Origin: Pseudanabaena sp.
GTDB lineage: Bacteria > Cyanobacteriota > Cyanobacteriia > Pseudanabaenales > Pseudanabaenaceae
Length of the DNA stretch: 32,940 nt
Direction of reading: 5' to 3'
Assembly (NCBI GenBank): GCA_003249035.1
Contig: QBMK01000039.1
Location: forward strand, 1-32,940
In this document: positions 12,553 to 19,299 of the stretch, piece by piece
How the letters are laid out: each line of letters starts with the position of its first letter
Position numbering within the stretch: position 1 is the first letter of the stretch
Translations under genes and position numbers: made by a program
The notes under the pieces: model-generated
What the model saw: only the letters and a program-made list of their open reading frames with translations
Database searches by the model: none
What the model was told of the DNA's origin: nothing

Positions 12553-13449
12553 CTAATCCGTCACATACTCTGGATTGCGATCGGCTTGATGCTCAACTAG
12601 TTGCAGAGATGCATTGGAGAAATCTGTACAATTCAAATTTGCACCATTTAGATTCGTTCTTAGTAAAAAAGCACCTTTAAAACTAGCTTTATAGCAATTG
12701 GATTTACTAAGATTTGTGCCTTCTAAACATGCTCTACCAAGTTGAGCATCAACCAGAAACGCACCATTAAGATCGGCATCTTTTAGATCGGCATCATTAA
12801 GATTGACATTGCTTAGATTTGCTCCACTCAGATCGGCTTTAGCCAATAATGCATCACTGAGATTGGCTGCATATAAATTCGCATGAGAAAGATCAGATGC
12901 AGAAAGATTTGCATGGCTAAGATTAGCTTCACTAAAGCTTGCCCCACTTAAGTTAGCGCCTTCAAGGTTTGCTCCGTTTAAGTTTGCCCCATCTAAGTTT
13001 GCTCCTTTTAAAAATGCTTCTGCGAGATTTGCTCCCTCTAGATTGGCTCCGACTAGAGACACACAACTTAAATTGGCTCTCGTCAAGTTAGAGTTGGCAA
13101 GACTCACCGCATTGAGATTTGCGCCAGTTAGGTCAGTATCCCTTAGACTAGTCCGTTCCAGCCTAGCACCATGCAAATCAGCCTTAATCAGACTAGCACC
13201 ATTTAGATCCGCCTCACAGAGATTTGCCTCGCTTAGACTAGCGCGGTATAAGACAGTAGAATTTAGCTTTGCTCCATATAAATTTGCTTCATTTAAAGTG
13301 GCGCAGGATAGATTAGCTTCGCTCAAATTGGCATTAGCCAGATTGATTGAGGTCAAACCCACACCACTAAAATCTTCACGGCTGAGATCGGTATCACTAA
13401 AATCTCGAAAGCCTTGGTTATAGCGATCGACTAATTCTCTAGCTTTCAT
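12553..13449 (-). CDS. pentapeptide-repeat protein, 298 aa
   Basis: After a short N-terminal helix (MKARELVDRYNQGFRDFSDT), almost the whole protein is consecutive A(N/D)LxX pentapeptides such as LSEANLSCATLNEANLYGAK. These would fold as one right-handed quadrilateral beta-helix of roughly a dozen coils. There is no signal peptide, membrane helix or fused catalytic domain. The N-terminal helix resembles the cap seen in many cyanobacterial members. The biochemical role is unknown; the family ranges from gyrase mimics to structural proteins. The gene lies 75 bp downstream of a paralogue in the same direction and probably arose with it by duplication. Confidence 0.93.
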   Translation of the reverse strand: MKARELVDRYNQGFRDFSDTDLSREDFSGVGLTSINLANANLSEANLSCATLNEANLYGAKLNSTVLYRASLSEANLCEADLNGASLIKADLHGARLERTSLRDTDLTGANLNAVSLANSNLTRANLSCVSLVGANLEGANLAEAFLKGANLDGANLNGANLEGANLSGASFSEANLSHANLSASDLSHANLYAANLSDALLAKADLSGANLSNVNLNDADLKDADLNGAFLVDAQLGRACLEGTNLSKSNCYKASFKGAFLLRTNLNGANLNCTDFSNASLQLVEHQADRNPEYVTD

Positions 13450-13524
13450 TACTCTTTCACACCATTTGTTTGTTTGCTTTTTAGGAAGTACTCAAAGCGA
13501 AGTTATAAAAAAATCTGAAAAATG

Positions 13525-14727
13525 CTATTTGTCCGTTGGCAAAATTGCCCCTGTCATATTTGCGCCATCTAAATTAGTCCATAACATGAAAGCCCCTCTC
13601 AAGTTTGTCCATAACATAAAAGCTCCTTTCAAGTTTGCGCCTGTTAGGCTAGCTCTAGAAAGATTGGCTCGATTGAGGTTAGCGTGATTTAAGCTAGCTC
13701 CATTTAAGACAGCTTCGTCAAGATTTGCACCTGTTAGATTTGCCTCGTTCAAAATTGCATTATGTAAATTTGTACGAATTAGGTAAGCGCCACGTAGATC
13801 GACATTGCTCAGATCTGCTCCACTTAAGTTTGCGCCCATCAAATTTGCACCGCTCAAATTGGCTCCACTCAAATTGGCATTGGACAGATTTACGCCGTTA
13901 AGATTTGCGCCACTGAGGTTAGATTTCATTAAAAATGCGCCCGTCATATTTGTCCAACTCAAGTCTGCTTCGGACAGGTTAGCTTCGTTTAAATTGGCCC
14001 AACTCAGATCGGACCCAACTAAATTTGCTTTTTCTAAGTTTGCACCTAGTAAATTTGACCAGCCCAAGTTAGCGCGGCTGAGTGAACCACCACTTAAATT
14101 TGTCTCAACAAGATCAACAGCATTGAGATTTGCCTCATTTAAAATTGCCCCACAAAGATCGGCTCCATGTAACTCTGCGCCTGTGAGGTTGGCTGCCGTG
14201 AGATCGACATTCATTAGACAGGCTTGACTAAGATTTGCCCCACTGAGATTTGCCTTGATCATCAATGCGCCCGTAAAGTCAGAGTCACTAAGATCAGCTC
14301 CCAATAAATTGGACTCTATAAAAAATGTGCCATTAAATTTTGCTCTACTAAGATTCGCGCCGTTGAGACATGCTCCTGTAAGGGTGGCAAGACTGAGATC
14401 GACGTTGATTAATGATGCACCTGTTAAATTAGCCGAGTTGAGATTGGCGGCAACTAGATAAGCTTCATTAAGGCATGCTCGTTGAAGATCCGCTTTGATT
14501 AGCAAAGCGGAGGTGAGATTTGCTTCAGCTAAATTGGCTTCGACCAGATTGGCTCTGGTTAAGTCAGCTCCATGAAGAAATGCGCCTGTGAGGTTTGCTT
14601 TAGAGAGTACCGCATCTGCAAGTTTGGCGTTGCTGAGATTAACGCGCTTAAGATCTGCTCCCTTAAGGTTGATTCCTTCTAGGTTTGATTTGGTAAGATT
14701 TGCTTTGGTAAAGTCAGTAAGATTCAC
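13525..14727 (-). CDS. pentapeptide-repeat protein, 400 aa
   Basis: The 400 residues are A(N/D)LxX pentapeptides from the first residues (MNLTDFTKANLTKSNLEGIN) to within about 10 residues of the end, with no N-terminal cap like that of its neighbour. It would form an unusually long uninterrupted beta-helix, around 19 coils at 20 residues each. A near-exact internal duplication is visible at the C terminus, where GAFMLWTNL occurs twice ten residues apart. No signal peptide or membrane segment. First of the two-gene pair; function unknown. The codon-level regularity also produces long open frames on the opposite strand, which are artefacts. Confidence 0.93.
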   Translation of the reverse strand: MNLTDFTKANLTKSNLEGINLKGADLKRVNLSNAKLADAVLSKANLTGAFLHGADLTRANLVEANLAEANLTSALLIKADLQRACLNEAYLVAANLNSANLTGASLINVDLSLATLTGACLNGANLSRAKFNGTFFIESNLLGADLSDSDFTGALMIKANLSGANLSQACLMNVDLTAANLTGAELHGADLCGAILNEANLNAVDLVETNLSGGSLSRANLGWSNLLGANLEKANLVGSDLSWANLNEANLSEADLSWTNMTGAFLMKSNLSGANLNGVNLSNANLSGANLSGANLMGANLSGADLSNVDLRGAYLIRTNLHNAILNEANLTGANLDEAVLNGASLNHANLNRANLSRASLTGANLKGAFMLWTNLRGAFMLWTNLDGANMTGAILPTDK

Positions 14728-15030: not shown

Positions 15031-15807
15031 ATGACAAATACAGATTTACAACAAGTTATTAAGCCTGCCTCAGATCGAGTTTTAGGTAAGGTTTATTTAG
15101 TTGGTGCGGGACCTGGTGATGCGGGATTGATGACGCTCAAGGGCAAAGCATTATTAGAAACTTGTGATGTTGTACTTTACGATGCTCTAGTTAGTGATGA
15201 AATCCTTGCCATGACTAATCCGATCGCGGAGAAAATTCATGCAGGAAAGCGGCGCGGTAACCATTCGTTATTGCAAGAGGAGACTACGCAGTTATTGATC
15301 GAGAAGGCGAAAGAGCAGGCAATCGTTGTGAGGTTGAAAGGGGGCGATCCGTTTATCTTTGGGCGTGGAGGTGAAGAGCTTGCTGATTTGAGATCGGCAG
15401 GAATTGCGGTTGAGATTGTCCCAGGAATTACCTCAGGGATTGCTGCACCAGCCTATGCGGGGATTCCACTTACTCATCGCGATTTTAGTTCGTCGGTAAT
15501 TTTTGTAACTGGGCATGAGTCAGCAGGAAAATATCGACCACAGATTAATTGGACAGCGATCGCTCAAGCCGCTGAAACAATCGTTGTATACATGGGATTA
15601 CATAATTTAGGTGAAATTGTCCCCAAGGTAATCGCGGCGGGATTACCTGAATCTACACCTGTAGCTTTAATTCGCCAAGGAACACGAGCCGATCAGGCAG
15701 AATTAATCGGCTGTTTGGGTAATATTGTTAAACTTGTGCAAGAAAGCAACTTTGCTCCGCCTGCGATCGCCGTCATTGGTAATATCGTAAACTTTCGAAA
15801 TATTTAA
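15031..15807 (+). CDS. cobA: uroporphyrinogen-III C-methyltransferase
   Basis: A 258-residue enzyme that uses SAM to methylate uroporphyrinogen III at C2 and C7, giving precorrin-2 for sirohaem and cobalamin. Signatures are GKVYLVGAGPGDAGLMTLKG at about residues 19-38, VVLYDALVS near 49-57, RLKGGDPFIFGRGGEE near 100-115, and VPGITSGIAAPAYAGIPLTHR near 129-149. There is no fused CysG dehydrogenase/chelatase or HemD domain. The gene is followed 52 bp later by the HepT-like gene, in the same direction. Confidence 0.95.
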   Translation: MTNTDLQQVIKPASDRVLGKVYLVGAGPGDAGLMTLKGKALLETCDVVLYDALVSDEILAMTNPIAEKIHAGKRRGNHSLLQEETTQLLIEKAKEQAIVVRLKGGDPFIFGRGGEELADLRSAGIAVEIVPGITSGIAAPAYAGIPLTHRDFSSSVIFVTGHESAGKYRPQINWTAIAQAAETIVVYMGLHNLGEIVPKVIAAGLPESTPVALIRQGTRADQAELIGCLGNIVKLVQESNFAPPAIAVIGNIVNFRNI

Positions 15808-15859: not shown

Positions 15860-16237
15860 ATGAATATAAGTAAAGTGAGTATTCCTAGTGAAATCGATAA
15901 TAATCATCGACTGGAAGCTCAAATACAAGACATTTTAGAAGCGATGACTGCCACTGAGTCATTTGTGTCGGGGATAGATTTTATGCAGTTTAGTTGCGAT
16001 CAAAAAACAATTTTTGCTGTAGAAAGGGCAATCAGTCTCATCGGTGCAACAGCGAAGCGATTGCCGATTAGTTTTACGGATCAGTATCCTCAAATTAATT
16101 GGAGACGTTTGACAAGTGTGGGAGATAGCTTGATGTTTGGCTATTTAGAGGTGGATCTCAATACTTTGTGGGAGTTGACTCAACAAGACGTGCCTTTTAT
16201 CAAAGACTTAATGCGAAAAGCGATCGCCACCTTATAA
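15860..16237 (+). CDS. degenerate HepT-like (DUF86) protein, solitary
   Basis: A 125-residue helical protein aligning with HepT RNase toxins: an early helix with DILEAMTATESFVSGIDF, then AVERAISLIGATAKRLPISF, then PQINWRRLTSVGDSLMFGYL, EVDLNTLWE. In active HepT the last block contains R-x4-H-x-Y. Here the Arg position is Gly88 and the His position is Phe93; only Tyr95 remains. The cognate MntA nucleotidyltransferase, normally adjacent, is absent: cobA is upstream and the next gene is a nuclease 414 bp away. So this is probably not an active toxin. It could be a leftover, an antitoxin-like homologue or a repurposed binding protein. The fold assignment is from remembered family patterns. Confidence 0.75.
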   Translation: MNISKVSIPSEIDNNHRLEAQIQDILEAMTATESFVSGIDFMQFSCDQKTIFAVERAISLIGATAKRLPISFTDQYPQINWRRLTSVGDSLMFGYLEVDLNTLWELTQQDVPFIKDLMRKAIATL

Positions 16238-16651
16238 ACAGCACCCCAATACAAGCTAAGAGCTTATTAAGACTCACACAAATAAAATGTAAACTTCTTT
16301 CTTCCTGTTTGACAAGGATTTTTGGGGGGAACTTTCTCTACAACTTTTGTTGAGATTTTAATATTGAGAACCAAACTTTCAACTTTAAGGAAGAAGCAGG
16401 AGAACAACTCACAGCCCATGAGGAGCAGTCTGAACATTACGCGATCATCAAACTGAAGTATTTAAACAGTGTTCCTTGAAATAATGGACACGATCAAGGA
16501 GATCGCTCTAGATGTTGCATAATTCAGCGCTTTGCGACCAAACCCAAACCAAGAAATTTTTTGCAAGTGTTGCAAAGCAACACTTGCAAAAAATTTCTTA
16601 TGGTTCGTTTCACCGATAATTGCTGTAACTAATCTATAAGCCTTTTCTCTT
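16238..16651. other. 414-bp intergenic region with a 23-bp hairpin
   Basis: 16551-16573 pairs perfectly with 16577-16599 over an AAA loop, a stem containing GCAAGTGTTGC. It is 52 bp upstream of the DUF790 start and followed by TATGG rather than a T-run, so it is unlikely to terminate transcription. The rest of the gap shows no credible gene, only a short open frame without protein character. Confidence 0.6.
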
Positions 16652-17866
16652 ATGCTGCCTAGCGAACTCCTGATGCATCGACTGAATGGCGAAACCGTCG
16701 TTCCTAAAAGATTAAAAGTAGATCAGAAGCATCAAGCGATCGCAATAGAACTAATCGCAATTTTTGAGAATGCTAAGGGCGGGACACAGAGCGAACTCGA
16801 TCGCCTATTGCAAGAACTTGAAGGCGACACCCCAGATTATCGGGTAAAGCGGGGATTGGCGCATATTCTCAAGTCCAGTTTCAGCACTTTTGAAATCGTA
16901 AGTCCGCTGGAACCTCAAGAATTACGCCGCCGTATTTTTGAATTGTCGGCTCAAGTTATACCTAGTCAGCAAGCTACAAAGCAAACCCTTACAGAACTTG
17001 CCGATAGCCTGACTGAAGAACTTAAGCGTGAAGTCTTACCTTCGCAAATTACAACGGGGCTTTATGCCGATCTGATGGAGAATCGGATTCTGACACAATT
17101 TGAAAGTCCAACACCTGAAGATCTCATCCATCGTTATAATCTTTCGCAAGTTCAGGGGATTTTCTATCGTGCAAGTCAAATGACTCTAAAAGTCCATCGC
17201 AACGATCCTGGGGAATATAAGCTGCTATTCCGTTATCTCAAGCTATTTCAACTAATGTCTTATATCGAAGGCGATGTCGATTATGGATTTACGATTACTG
17301 TAGATGGGGCGACGAGTTTGTTTGGCACGAGTACCCGTTACGGACTTGCGATCGCAAAGCTTCTTCCTGCCCTACTTCATGTAACCAAATGGAGCCTCAA
17401 CGCCACCCTCGTTGAAAAAGATACTTATTCAAAACAAAAGCGTACAGGTTTATTTACTCTCGATTCTGATTGTGGCTTAGTCAGCCATTATCCTGCTGGC
17501 AAAATGTATGACAGTGCGATCGAGTCATCGTTTGCAGAACGTTGGGCAGAACTAAAAACTGAGTGGAAGTTAGAAAGAGAAGTAGATTTAATTCCCATTC
17601 CTGGGAGTGTGATGATTCCTGATTTTCGATTAGTGCATCCCGATGGACGTACTTATTTATTAGAGATCGTTGGCTATTGGCGACCTGAGTATTTACGCAA
17701 GAAATTTTCGCAGGTGAGACAAGCTAATTGTGAGAATTTGATTTTGGCGATTTCTGAACGCCTGAATCTGGAGAAGGCGGGTGTAAAAGTAAGCGATACT
17801 CCTGCGCTGACAGTTTGGTTTAAGGATAAACTTTCGCCCAAAGTAGTTTTACAAGCGATCGAATAG
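16652..17866 (+). CDS. DUF790 / Bax1-like nuclease
   Basis: A 404-residue protein starting MLPSELLMHRLNGETVVPKR, the usual DUF790 opening. The C-terminal region has a PD-(D/E)xK-like arrangement: MIPDFRLVHPDGRTYLLEIV (Asp about 326, Glu about 338), then GYWRPEYLRKK. Archaeal Bax1, of the same family, is an endonuclease partnered with XPB helicase in nucleotide excision repair. No helicase is in this window, so a partner would be elsewhere. The central part (FGTSTRYGLAIAKLLPALL) is the conserved family core. Its stop codon TAG (17864-17866) coincides with the left edge of a 442-bp tandem duplication. Function in cyanobacteria is inferred, not shown. Confidence 0.82.
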   Translation: MLPSELLMHRLNGETVVPKRLKVDQKHQAIAIELIAIFENAKGGTQSELDRLLQELEGDTPDYRVKRGLAHILKSSFSTFEIVSPLEPQELRRRIFELSAQVIPSQQATKQTLTELADSLTEELKREVLPSQITTGLYADLMENRILTQFESPTPEDLIHRYNLSQVQGIFYRASQMTLKVHRNDPGEYKLLFRYLKLFQLMSYIEGDVDYGFTITVDGATSLFGTSTRYGLAIAKLLPALLHVTKWSLNATLVEKDTYSKQKRTGLFTLDSDCGLVSHYPAGKMYDSAIESSFAERWAELKTEWKLEREVDLIPIPGSVMIPDFRLVHPDGRTYLLEIVGYWRPEYLRKKFSQVRQANCENLILAISERLNLEKAGVKVSDTPALTVWFKDKLSPKVVLQAIE

Positions 17867-17868
17867 AA

Positions 17869-17922
17869 TGCCCCATATACCTTAGTGGCAATTCATGAAT
17901 TGCCACTAAGGTATATGGGGCA
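17869..17922. repeat. perfect 54-bp palindrome, copy 1
   Basis: TGCCCCATATACC starts a sequence that equals its own reverse complement over 54 bp, centred on ATTCATGAAT with no loop. It begins two bases after the DUF790 stop. Between convergent genes it could act as a bidirectional transcription barrier, though it lacks a T-run, or it could be a mobile palindromic repeat. Confidence 0.85.
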
Positions 17923-17939
17923 AAGCGATGTACGGAAAA

Positions 17940-18304
17940 CTAAGGATTGCAATAGGAGCAGTACATCGGATCAGCAGTTTGCACTTCATCTGGGAATAGA
18001 ACTTCTTGCTGAAACTGACAGCGATCGCAACGATAGATATGAGCGCGAGTAACTTGAGTGGGTAAGCCGCACAGTTCACATGGCAAACCCTTCCGTCTTT
18101 CTACGACATCGAAATCCACAAAACCGCAATTTGGACAGAGTTGCTGCAACTTACGTACTAAATCTTCAGTGGCTTTAGCAATATTATTCATGCGAGTTGG
18201 ATTGTAGAGCGATCGCATATCTGTTTCAATATGGATTTGTGATGATTGTTTTAGTAACTCATTGACAGATTCTTTGAGTAAATCTTCTGAAGTAATTCCT
18301 TTGT
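17940..18304 (-). pseudogene. duplicated 3' fragment of the DUF6671 gene
   Basis: This is an identical copy of the last third of the DUF6671 gene, cut at the duplication junction. Upstream in frame it runs into the second palindrome and a TAA, with no start codon between. Only an internal ATG (18218) could give a 92-residue product, which would consist of the zinc-ribbon-like C terminus (CPNCGF, CELCGL, CDRCQF, CSYC). Probably not functional. Confidence 0.8.
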
Positions 18305-18310
18305 ATAGAA

Positions 18311-18364
18311 TGCCCCATATACCTTAGTGGCAATTCATGAATTGCCACTAAGGTATATGGGGCA
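18311..18364. repeat. perfect 54-bp palindrome, copy 2
   Basis: Identical to the copy at 17869-17922, carried by the second duplication unit. It lies 17 bp beyond the stop of the intact DUF6671 gene, so in the presumed ancestral arrangement a single palindrome separated that gene from DUF790. Confidence 0.85.
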
Positions 18365-18381
18365 AAGCGATGTACGGAAAA

Positions 18382-19299
18382 CTAAGGATTGCAATAGGAG
18401 CAGTACATCGGATCAGCAGTTTGCACTTCATCTGGGAATAGAACTTCTTGCTGAAACTGACAGCGATCGCAACGATAGATATGAGCGCGAGTAACTTGAG
18501 TGGGTAAGCCGCACAGTTCACATGGCAAACCCTTCCGTCTTTCTACGACATCGAAATCCACAAAACCGCAATTTGGACAGAGTTGCTGCAACTTACGTAC
18601 TAAATCTTCAGTGGCTTTAGCAATATTATTCATGCGAGTTGGATTGTAGAGCGATCGCATATCTGTTTCAATATGGATTTGTGATGATTGTTTTAGTAAC
18701 TCATTGACAGATTCTTTGAGTAAATCTTCTGAAGTAATTCCTTTGTAAATAGCCTCTTTTGCAGAGGTCTTGGAATCTTGCATCAGCACGATCGCATGAT
18801 CGGGAAAGCCAATTTTTAGCGCAAAATCATAGGCTTGGTCATAGCTAGAAATTTCTTGATGGCGAAAGTTCGTATCAGTGGAGAGAAATTCGCCGTAAAC
18901 AGAGAAGTTATGCTTTTGATCCAGTAAAAAAACAATTTCGCGATTGTAAGGGATACTTAGCATTGGATGCGGGAAAAAGCTGCCTTCACTAGCGATCGCT
19001 AGATCAGCGTCAATTAGTTCTAAAGCTTTTTCGGCTTTGAGTTTTGCAGTTTCAACTTGATTAGCAGGGCGATCAATATCGCGGGTAAATGTGCCGAACA
19101 AGTCACTATCAAAATCTTGAGGGACTGTAATTCTAACGCCTAAGGATGTTTGTAATATTGGCGCGATCGCTAATTCCTTGCGATGCATTGTGGCGATCAC
19201 CACTAGGCGATCGCGAAAGTCGATTCTATGGTCTATTGGATTCCCTTGTTCCCCTCTCCCACTGGGAGAGGGGATAGAAGCATTACTCGTCATGGGCAA
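18382..19299 (-). CDS. DUF6671 family protein with C-terminal zinc-ribbon-like cysteines
   Basis: A 305-residue protein. The DUF6671 core begins near residue 29 (RDRLVVIATMHRKELAIAPI) and runs through DADLAIASEGSFFPHPMLSI and REIVFLLDQ. The C-terminal 65 residues hold eight cysteines in four CxxC pairs (CPNC, CELC, CDRC, CSYC), likely binding two zinc ions. The function is unknown. The first about 25 residues (PSPSGRGEQG) are encoded by a G/C-rich inverted repeat at 19251-19273, so the annotated start may include repeat-derived sequence; a later GTG (MVIATMHRKE) is the alternative. The start overlaps the end of cmpD by 17 bp on the same strand, so it may be read with the cmp cluster. Confidence 0.8.
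   Translation of the reverse strand: MPMTSNASIPSPSGRGEQGNPIDHRIDFRDRLVVIATMHRKELAIAPILQTSLGVRITVPQDFDSDLFGTFTRDIDRPANQVETAKLKAEKALELIDADLAIASEGSFFPHPMLSIPYNREIVFLLDQKHNFSVYGEFLSTDTNFRHQEISSYDQAYDFALKIGFPDHAIVLMQDSKTSAKEAIYKGITSEDLLKESVNELLKQSSQIHIETDMRSLYNPTRMNNIAKATEDLVRKLQQLCPNCGFVDFDVVERRKGLPCELCGLPTQVTRAHIYRCDRCQFQQEVLFPDEVQTADPMYCSYCNP
19251..19273. repeat. REP-like inverted repeat inside the DUF6671 5' end
   Basis: CCCCTCTCCCA (19251-19261) pairs with TGGGAGAGGGG (19263-19273) around one base. Sequences like this are a common dispersed repeat in cyanobacteria. Here it is in frame and would be translated as part of the N terminus of the DUF6671 protein, just after the cmpD stop. Confidence 0.6.

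What the first reader, a model, noticed from the sequence alone, without database searches (positions are those of the whole stretch)
15860..16237. Solitary HepT-like protein without the RNase motif or MntA partner
The R-x4-H-x-Y site of HepT is changed to Gly and Phe at the Arg and His positions, while the Tyr that MntA modifies and the surrounding fold are kept. No nucleotidyltransferase is adjacent. An intact reading frame despite lost catalysis suggests a new role, for example binding another MntA-like enzyme, rather than simple decay.
Basis: partly seen in the sequence, partly recalled or inferred. Interest (0 to 1): 0.6.

Follow-up and report, generated by a model that had tools for sequence, protein, structure and literature searches.

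The report
Domesticated dead HepT toxin in cyanobacteria
A bacterial RNA-cutting toxin gene has lost its cutting site and its antitoxin partner, yet a family of cyanobacteria keeps it intact under strong selection, so it very probably does a different, still unknown job.

Summary
ORF 15860-16237 is a HepT-like protein (PF01934, E 1.2e-15) in which Arg and His of R-x4-H-x-Y are Gly88 and Phe93. It is not decay. Open orthologues sit in 31 of 38 genomes of the window's family (24 of 26 in the genus); among the other 350 genomes scanned the best hit scores 115 bits, against 180 for the weakest orthologue. Gly88 is invariant in 29 distinct sequences while all four Gly codons are used; median dN/dS is 0.095. 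Helix-2 acids at positions 59 and 63 are also gone in 29 of 29, so the predicted RNase cleft is stripped. An MntA-type gene lies within 700 bp in 0 of 31 loci, against 37 of 39 canonical relatives. The tree needs one change. The guess that it binds another MntA is not supported: the Tyr is Val in 3 of 7 out-of-genus orthologues, and the one MNT whose partner is broken is not conserved with it. Best reading: a toxin domesticated once into a non-catalytic binding or regulatory protein; its target is unknown. Inactive, partnerless HEPN proteins are a known kind; this clade-fixed form is a new variant.

The parts
15860..16237 (+). hepT-like gene, 125 aa, catalytic motif lost (the finding)
   Evidence: ORF; PF01934 E 1.2e-15; AlphaFold model pLDDT 88; VIA-align Z 11.9 to a HEPN toxin
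16121..16144 (+). former R-x4-H-x-Y site, residues 88-95 = GDSLMFGY (Gly88 for Arg, Phe93 for His, Tyr95 kept)
   Evidence: alignment; codon table
16034..16048 (+). helix-2 acidic positions lost: residue 59 (Glu in 31 of 36 canonical rows; Gly or Ser in 29 of 29 variants) and residue 63 (Glu in 36 of 36; Ala or Met in 29 of 29)
16022..16024 (+). residue 55, Glu in 29 of 29 variants and in 0 of 36 canonical rows: newly fixed, about two helical turns before residue 63
15031..15807 (+). tetrapyrrole methylase, called cobA here (gene name by inference); upstream neighbour in the window and in 23 of 23 other genus loci, not found in the 7 loci of other genera; 52 bp before the hepT-like gene
   Evidence: Pfam PF00590; synteny; gaps

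Best explanation
A HepT RNase toxin lost its active site and its MntA antitoxin, once, in the line leading to most of the window's family (Pseudanabaenaceae), and was then kept as a single chromosomal gene with a new, non-catalytic role. SHOWN by computation: HepT family, fold closest to HepT, loss of the motif residues and of two helix-2 acids in every orthologue read, absence of an adjacent MntA, one change on the tree, purifying selection, conserved place inside the genus. INFERRED: that the change was a loss (the canonical motif is the widespread state) and that RNase activity is gone. INFERRED, weaker: the protein is still a helical homodimer, as HEPN toxins are, and acts by binding through the emptied cleft or the newly conserved residues (Gln21, Glu55, Phe72, Gly94), to RNA or to a protein, in the manner of the HEPN-family repressor MtlR, a homodimer that works through protein binding. 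The target is unknown.
For: Orthologues in 31 of 38 family genomes, lowest 180 bits against 115 for the next hit. Motif and helix-2 acids switched in 29 of 29 distinct variants; fold residues F35, F44, A53, W81, W104 shared by all 29 and by 36 of 36 canonical rows. MntA-type frame adjacent in 0 of 31 variant loci and 37 of 39 canonical loci. One change on the ML tree, also with 16 switch columns removed (support 100/99 and 99/95). Median dN/dS 0.095 over 166 of 276 pairs; no internal stops in 24 sequences. In the two genus genomes without it, no credible remnant lies within 1.5 kb of cobA. It is the only PF01934 protein at E up to 1e-5 in 6 of 22 genus genomes. Precedents: HEPN domains that lack the conserved residues are predicted to act as binding domains (PMC3710099, passages); MtlR-HPr complex (PMC6763467, abstract and outline).
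Against: No direct evidence of binding or of a target. Neighbours differ between genera, so context names no pathway. In a Legionella HEPN, R and H of the motif were dispensable and a helix-2 Gln/Glu Mg site did the cutting (PMC11586414, passages), so loss of R and H alone does not prove inactivity; the invariant Glu55 could be a moved acid. PMC3710099 also reports that motif-less HEPN proteins scored as toxins in a genome-scale screen (passages). dN/dS is higher than for the two neighbour genes compared (0.065 and 0.036), and median dS of 1.25 makes it rough. Dimerisation was not modelled. 7 of 38 family genomes lack the gene, so some species do without it.
Confidence: 0.62

Rival explanations
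1. It still is an RNase, with a moved active site: the invariant Glu55 on helix 2, with Asp89 and the conserved Arg56 and Arg67, forms a metal or acid-base site, as helix-2 Gln/Glu do in a Legionella HEPN.
For: Glu55 in 29 of 29 variants and 0 of 36 canonical rows; Asp89 in 28 and Glu in 1 of 29; Arg56 and Arg67 in 29 of 29. The Legionella work shows that the motif can be dispensable (PMC11586414, passages).
Against: The two acids that canonical relatives carry on helix 2 (59, 63) are both gone. A free RNase toxin without antitoxin, kept in 31 genomes, would be expected to harm the cell unless its target is narrow. The residue match to the Legionella site was not tested.
Confidence: 0.12
2. 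It remains a substrate or partner of an MntA-like nucleotidyltransferase encoded elsewhere.
For: Tyr95 kept in 24 of 24 genus members and 4 of 7 others. Four MNT genes exist in the genome; one has a HEPN partner with an in-frame stop.
Against: Tyr is Val in three orthologues of two genera (L084, L085, L086). Three of four MNTs have their own intact HEPN neighbour. The MNT with the broken partner is found at 82% identity or more in only 6 of 22 genus genomes, including G001, which lacks the variant. Conservation of the other three MNTs across the genus was not tested.
Confidence: 0.08
3. It poisons or buffers active HepT toxins by forming mixed dimers with them (a dominant-negative antitoxin).
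For: 16 of 22 genus genomes have more than one PF01934 match or only other copies, and this genome has a HepT-like_2 (PF20797) toxin of another family. HEPN toxins are dimers (PMC11586414, passages).
Against: It is kept as the only PF01934 protein at E up to 1e-5 in 6 of 22 genus genomes (G000, G003, G004, G008, G009, G014). The 39 canonical relatives read are only 31-44% identical to it.
Confidence: 0.06
4. A recently inactivated, decaying toxin gene that happens to be open.
For: The catalytic residues are lost and the partner is gone.
Against: The same variant is fixed in 31 genomes, with median dN/dS 0.095 and no stops.
Confidence: 0.02

Closest known systems
HepT of the HepT/MntA (HEPN-MNT, type VII) toxin-antitoxin system, Shewanella oneidensis SO_3166 (PMC7641770, passages; structures 5yep, 6m6u)
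   Same: HEPN fold (VIA-align Z 11.4-11.8); Tyr of the motif in 26 of 29 distinct variants
   Different: Arg and His of R-x4-H-x-Y gone, no MntA beside it, single-copy chromosomal gene of one cyanobacterial family; 11-12% identity
HEPN toxin of Aphanizomenon flos-aquae, structures 7ae2/7ae6/7ae8/7ae9 (organism as given for 7AE2, there as A. flos-aquae, in PMC11586414; genus name recalled)
   Same: Best structural match, Z 11.9 over 112 residues
   Different: 12% identity; the structure titles name R102, H107 and Y109, that is the motif, and an MNT partner
Bacillus subtilis YutE (1ylm)
   Same: DUF86 member by PMC3710099 (passages); in the yutD-yutE-yutF operon, in which no MNT is named (PMC5132288, passages); Z 8.6
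   Different: Operon with a HAD 5'-nucleotidase; whether it keeps the R-x4-H motif was not checked here
MtlR, repressor of the mannitol operon
   Same: In PMC3710099 a HEPN family in which a large fraction lost the motif and which acts without known enzyme activity (passages)
   Different: A different family with a known operon and partner (HPr, PMC6763467 abstract); no MtlR match for our protein in Pfam at E up to 0.1

Membership tests
Pfam PF01934 HepT-like | Profile match over the curated cut-off | tested here: met
   57.7 bits against 23.5, E 1.2e-15, profile 1-119 of 120
HepT toxin of HepT/MntA | HEPN helical fold as in solved HepT | tested here: met
   Model pLDDT 88, pTM 0.78; first eight VIA-align rows are HepT/HEPN toxins, Z 10.9-11.9, first unrelated row 8.7. 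Caution: the tool warns that Z under about 13 can be common among helical bundles, and Foldseek E-values were weak (best 0.077)
HepT toxin of HepT/MntA | R-x4-H RNase motif | tested here: not met
   Gly88 in 29 of 29 distinct variants; position 93 Phe in 24, Tyr in 5
HepT toxin of HepT/MntA | Adjacent MntA with GSx10DxD | tested here: not met
   0 of 31 variant loci, 37 of 39 canonical loci, same strand, within 700 bp
HepT toxin of HepT/MntA | Tyr that receives AMP from MntA | tested here: inconclusive
   Tyr95 present in the window and in 26 of 29 distinct variants, Val in 3; modification not testable
HepT toxin of HepT/MntA | RNase activity and toxicity, neutralised by the partner | not testable with these tools
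   needs bench work
MtlR | Profile match to the MtlR family | tested here: not met
   Only PF01934 reported at E up to 0.1; MtlR is used as a model of action, not of membership

The most novel reading that the evidence does not exclude
A HepT toxin has been turned, once, into a core non-catalytic regulator of a cyanobacterial family: the emptied RNase cleft, with the newly fixed Glu55, Gly88, aromatic 93 and Gly94, is a binding site for a specific RNA, nucleotide or protein that controls a house-keeping process.
Probability: 0.3. Interest if true: 0.6.

Novelty: new variant of a known kind. Interest (0 to 1): 0.42.

Why it matters
Toxin-antitoxin genes are often said to be raw material for cellular regulators. 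Here the loss of the RNase site, the loss of MntA and the later selection can be seen together in one clade, set against 39 canonical relatives, which makes the idea directly testable in culturable cyanobacteria. It also warns that a ribonuclease or toxin label taken from the family profile alone would probably be wrong for this gene in the 31 genomes seen here.

Tried and rejected
Conserved operon partner: cobA is upstream in 24 of 24 genus loci (23, plus the window), but the gap is 5-57 bp in 18 and 110-933 bp in 6, and in the seven loci of other genera the neighbours are different genes. A role in siroheme or nitrate assimilation is therefore not claimed. The DUF790 gene that follows in the window was found in none of the other 30 loci examined (some are cut by contig ends).

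Orphan MntA elsewhere in the genome: four MNT genes; see rivals. Mobile carriage: plasmid records match only below 60% identity, best-listed 37% (1,373 records); the viral-contig scan confirmed no relative (33 stretches matched a peptide pattern, none passed tblastn; the scan is pattern-based, so distant relatives could be missed). The phage collection was not searched.

Remnants in G001 and G006: in the loci held (1.5 kb on each side of the cobA match) only chance-level matches (E 0.44 to 4.6) were seen; two lie inside cobA itself, and one is a 9-column match in G001 on the opposite strand (E 4.6) that I take as chance.

Foldseek alone gave no E-value under 0.001. A PDB sequence search with the single protein gave nothing meaningful; a 21-row profile found the Shewanella HepT at E 0.0008, on its C-terminal third only.

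dN/dS for the neighbouring RRF gene was thrown out: the reading used holds stop codons in 9 of 22 relatives and its values make no sense. Of 276 pairs for the hepT-like gene, only the 166 with dS between 0.1 and 1.5 entered the median; 29 were saturated.

Rows dropped before the tree and column counts: two variants identical to others (L064, L078) and three canonical rows under 90 aa (L050, L123, L133), leaving 29 and 36 of 70.

Motif check outside the clade: the 39 canonical loci are among the best-scoring ones, chosen by me from the lists, not a random draw; five of them lie in the window's own family. Lower-scoring and unlisted hits were not read, so other inactive HepTs may exist elsewhere.

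Literature: 'HepT-like'+'Pseudanabaena' and 'DUF86'+'cyanobacteria'+'solitary' returned 0 papers in the held library; one search was too broad to help. This is not proof that nothing is in print. Papers: PMC7641770, PMC3710099, PMC11586414, PMC4963859 and PMC5132288 were seen as passages; PMC6763467 and PMC5845740 as abstract and outline. PMC4963859 lists a stand-alone DUF86 (slr7032) in Synechocystis; not followed up.

After the request to check the report I added.

Full report
What is there. The window lies in a cyanobacterium of the genus Pseudanabaena or very near it: the nearest named records that encode the gene are Pseudanabaena sp. UWO311, lw0831 and others, 9 loci, 79-88% identical. 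ORF 15860-16237 codes for 125 residues and matches PF01934 HepT-like at E 1.2e-15; NCBIfam gave only two matches far below their cut-offs and PADLOC none. It is the only PF01934 protein over the cut-off in this genome; two partial matches at E 0.08 and 0.25 lie elsewhere. A ColabFold model from ten close sequences has pLDDT 88 and pTM 0.78, with main helices 10-35, 48-65, 81-92 and 100-124. VIA-align lists eight HepT/HEPN toxin entries first (Z 11.9 down to 10.9), then an unrelated row at 8.7 and YutE at 8.6. The tool warns that such Z values can be common for helical bundles, so the sequence match carries the family claim.

The motif. In canonical relatives the site reads for example R-D-K-L-I-H-x-Y; here it reads G-D-S-L-M-F-G-Y. 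In 29 distinct orthologues Gly88 is invariant and position 93 is Phe (24) or Tyr (5); in 36 canonical rows position 88 is Arg (35) or Lys (1) and 93 is His (36). Two helix-2 positions change with it: residue 63 is Glu in 36 of 36 canonical rows and Ala (28) or Met (1) in variants; residue 59 is Glu in 31 of 36 and Gly or Ser in 29 of 29. Anantharaman et al. (PMC3710099, passages; author name recalled) describe a helix-2 acid (E-x3-[KR]) close to the motif as part of the predicted active site; that residue 63 is that acid is my inference from its place and spacing. So the cleft is stripped, not just nicked. In return Glu55 (29 of 29, against 0 of 36) and Phe72 (29 of 29, against 2 of 36) became fixed and Gln21 and Gly94 nearly so (28 of 29 each).

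The Tyr. It is kept in 24 of 24 genus members and in 4 of 7 orthologues from other genera; in L084, L085 and L086 it is Val. 'Tyr kept' is true for the window and the genus, not for the whole clade.

Distribution. With a 29-row profile, 388 genomes of the class were searched. The 31 variant genes, one per genome, score 180-233 bits and all lie in the window's family; the next hit has 115 bits. They occur in 24 of 26 genus genomes and 7 of 12 other family genomes, and none has a stop inside. Several lie on contigs of 3.7-4.9 Mb, that is on the chromosome. In the two genus genomes without it, G001 and G006, the cobA gene is present and no credible remnant lies within 1.5 kb. Of the best hits outside the clade I read 39 loci: 19 and 20. 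The 20 all carry R-x4-H-x-Y; of the 36 canonical rows counted, one (L056) has Lys for Arg.

No antitoxin. A reading frame of 60 to 320 aa with the strict pattern GSx10DxD, same strand, within 700 bp, is found in 37 of 39 canonical loci and 0 of 31 variant loci. The two canonical misses are L123, whose hepT frame has stops, and L126, where the gene match begins 76 bp from the contig end.

Origin and selection. On an ML tree of 65 proteins the variant needs one change (support 100/99, all 200 bootstrap trees); with 16 motif and switch columns removed it still needs one (99/95). The count does not depend on the root; that the change was a loss is inferred from the wide spread of the canonical motif. 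The stem is long when the tree is rooted on L061 (1.21 and 0.66 changes per column; the two trees use different alignments), and both runs warn of long branches among canonical rows. Within the genus, median dN/dS is 0.095 (166 of 276 pairs, highest 0.33), against 0.065 for cobA and 0.036 for a pentapeptide-repeat gene; no sequence of 24 has an internal stop. Median dS of 1.25 makes these values rough. This is the pattern of a changed and then conserved protein, somewhat less constrained than its neighbours.

Context. In all 24 genus loci the gene follows cobA (and the window), by 5-57 bp in 18 and 110-933 bp in 6. In the seven loci of other genera the neighbours are other genes: a PLD-like gene upstream in L088 and L089 (54% identical) and an SLH/L,D-transpeptidase gene downstream in L084 and L089 (63% identical). 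I saw no neighbour common to the clade, which argues against an operon-bound function and against a new toxin-antitoxin pair.

Rivals tested. The genome has four MNT genes. Three sit beside an intact HEPN gene of another Pfam family, PF05168 twice and HepT-like_2 PF20797 once; the fourth sits beside a PF05168-like gene with an in-frame stop. That fourth MNT is present at 82% identity or more in 6 of 22 genus genomes, the window's own included, and one of them, G001, lacks the variant. A mixed-dimer inhibitor of active HepTs is unlikely as its main role, because in 6 of 22 genus genomes it is the only PF01934 protein, though a PF20797 toxin exists in this genome.

How it most likely works. It is best read as a domesticated toxin that no longer cuts RNA but keeps the HepT scaffold and acts by binding. 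The nearest working model is MtlR, a HEPN-family repressor said to have lost the motif in a large fraction of members (PMC3710099, passages), whose E. coli form is a homodimer that binds HPr (PMC6763467, abstract and outline). The binding step and the partner are inference. An important caution comes from Legionella, where R and H of the motif could be mutated with negligible effect on RNase activity and a helix-2 Gln/Glu metal site was needed (PMC11586414, passages; that Glu47 is on helix 2 is my inference from its nearness to Gln44). The loss of both helix-2 acids here makes activity less likely, but the new invariant Glu55 keeps that rival open.

Novelty. HEPN domains without the motif are known (the PF08780/DUF86 group was given as 83% conserved, PMC3710099), so the kind is known. 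The clade-wide fixed, partnerless form in Pseudanabaenaceae did not turn up in two narrow searches of the held library.

Noticed in passing
window 17863-18162 and 18305-18604: Perfect direct repeat (300 nt reported, spacing 442) holding a 54-nt perfect palindrome; it duplicates the 3' end of the DUF6671 gene (18382-19299), leaving a 92-aa fragment ORF 17940-18218. Could be a real tandem duplication or an assembly effect.
   Followed up: partly
window 16551-16599: Perfect inverted repeat with 23-nt arms and a 3-nt loop just downstream of the gene; its core (up to 3 mismatches) occurs at 7 other places in the genome and the reversed control at none, so it looks like a dispersed palindromic element.
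   Followed up: partly
G000 C17:21658-21984 (L095): MNT gene whose adjacent HEPN partner carries an in-frame TAG, i.e. an apparently partnerless antitoxin in the same genome.
   Followed up: partly
window 16652-17866: DUF790 gene with partial similarity to archaeal endonuclease Bax1 models (below their cut-offs) next to the hepT-like gene; not found in the other 30 loci examined.
   Followed up: no
window 12553-14727: Two adjacent pentapeptide-repeat genes upstream of cobA (the first was scanned in Pfam); both have close relatives in 21 of 23 other genus loci (86-95% identity for the second).
   Followed up: no
L084, L088, L089: Orthologues in other genera share different neighbours: a PLD-like gene upstream (L088, L089) and an SLH plus L,D-transpeptidase gene downstream (L084, L089), perhaps the ancestral setting.
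   Followed up: partly
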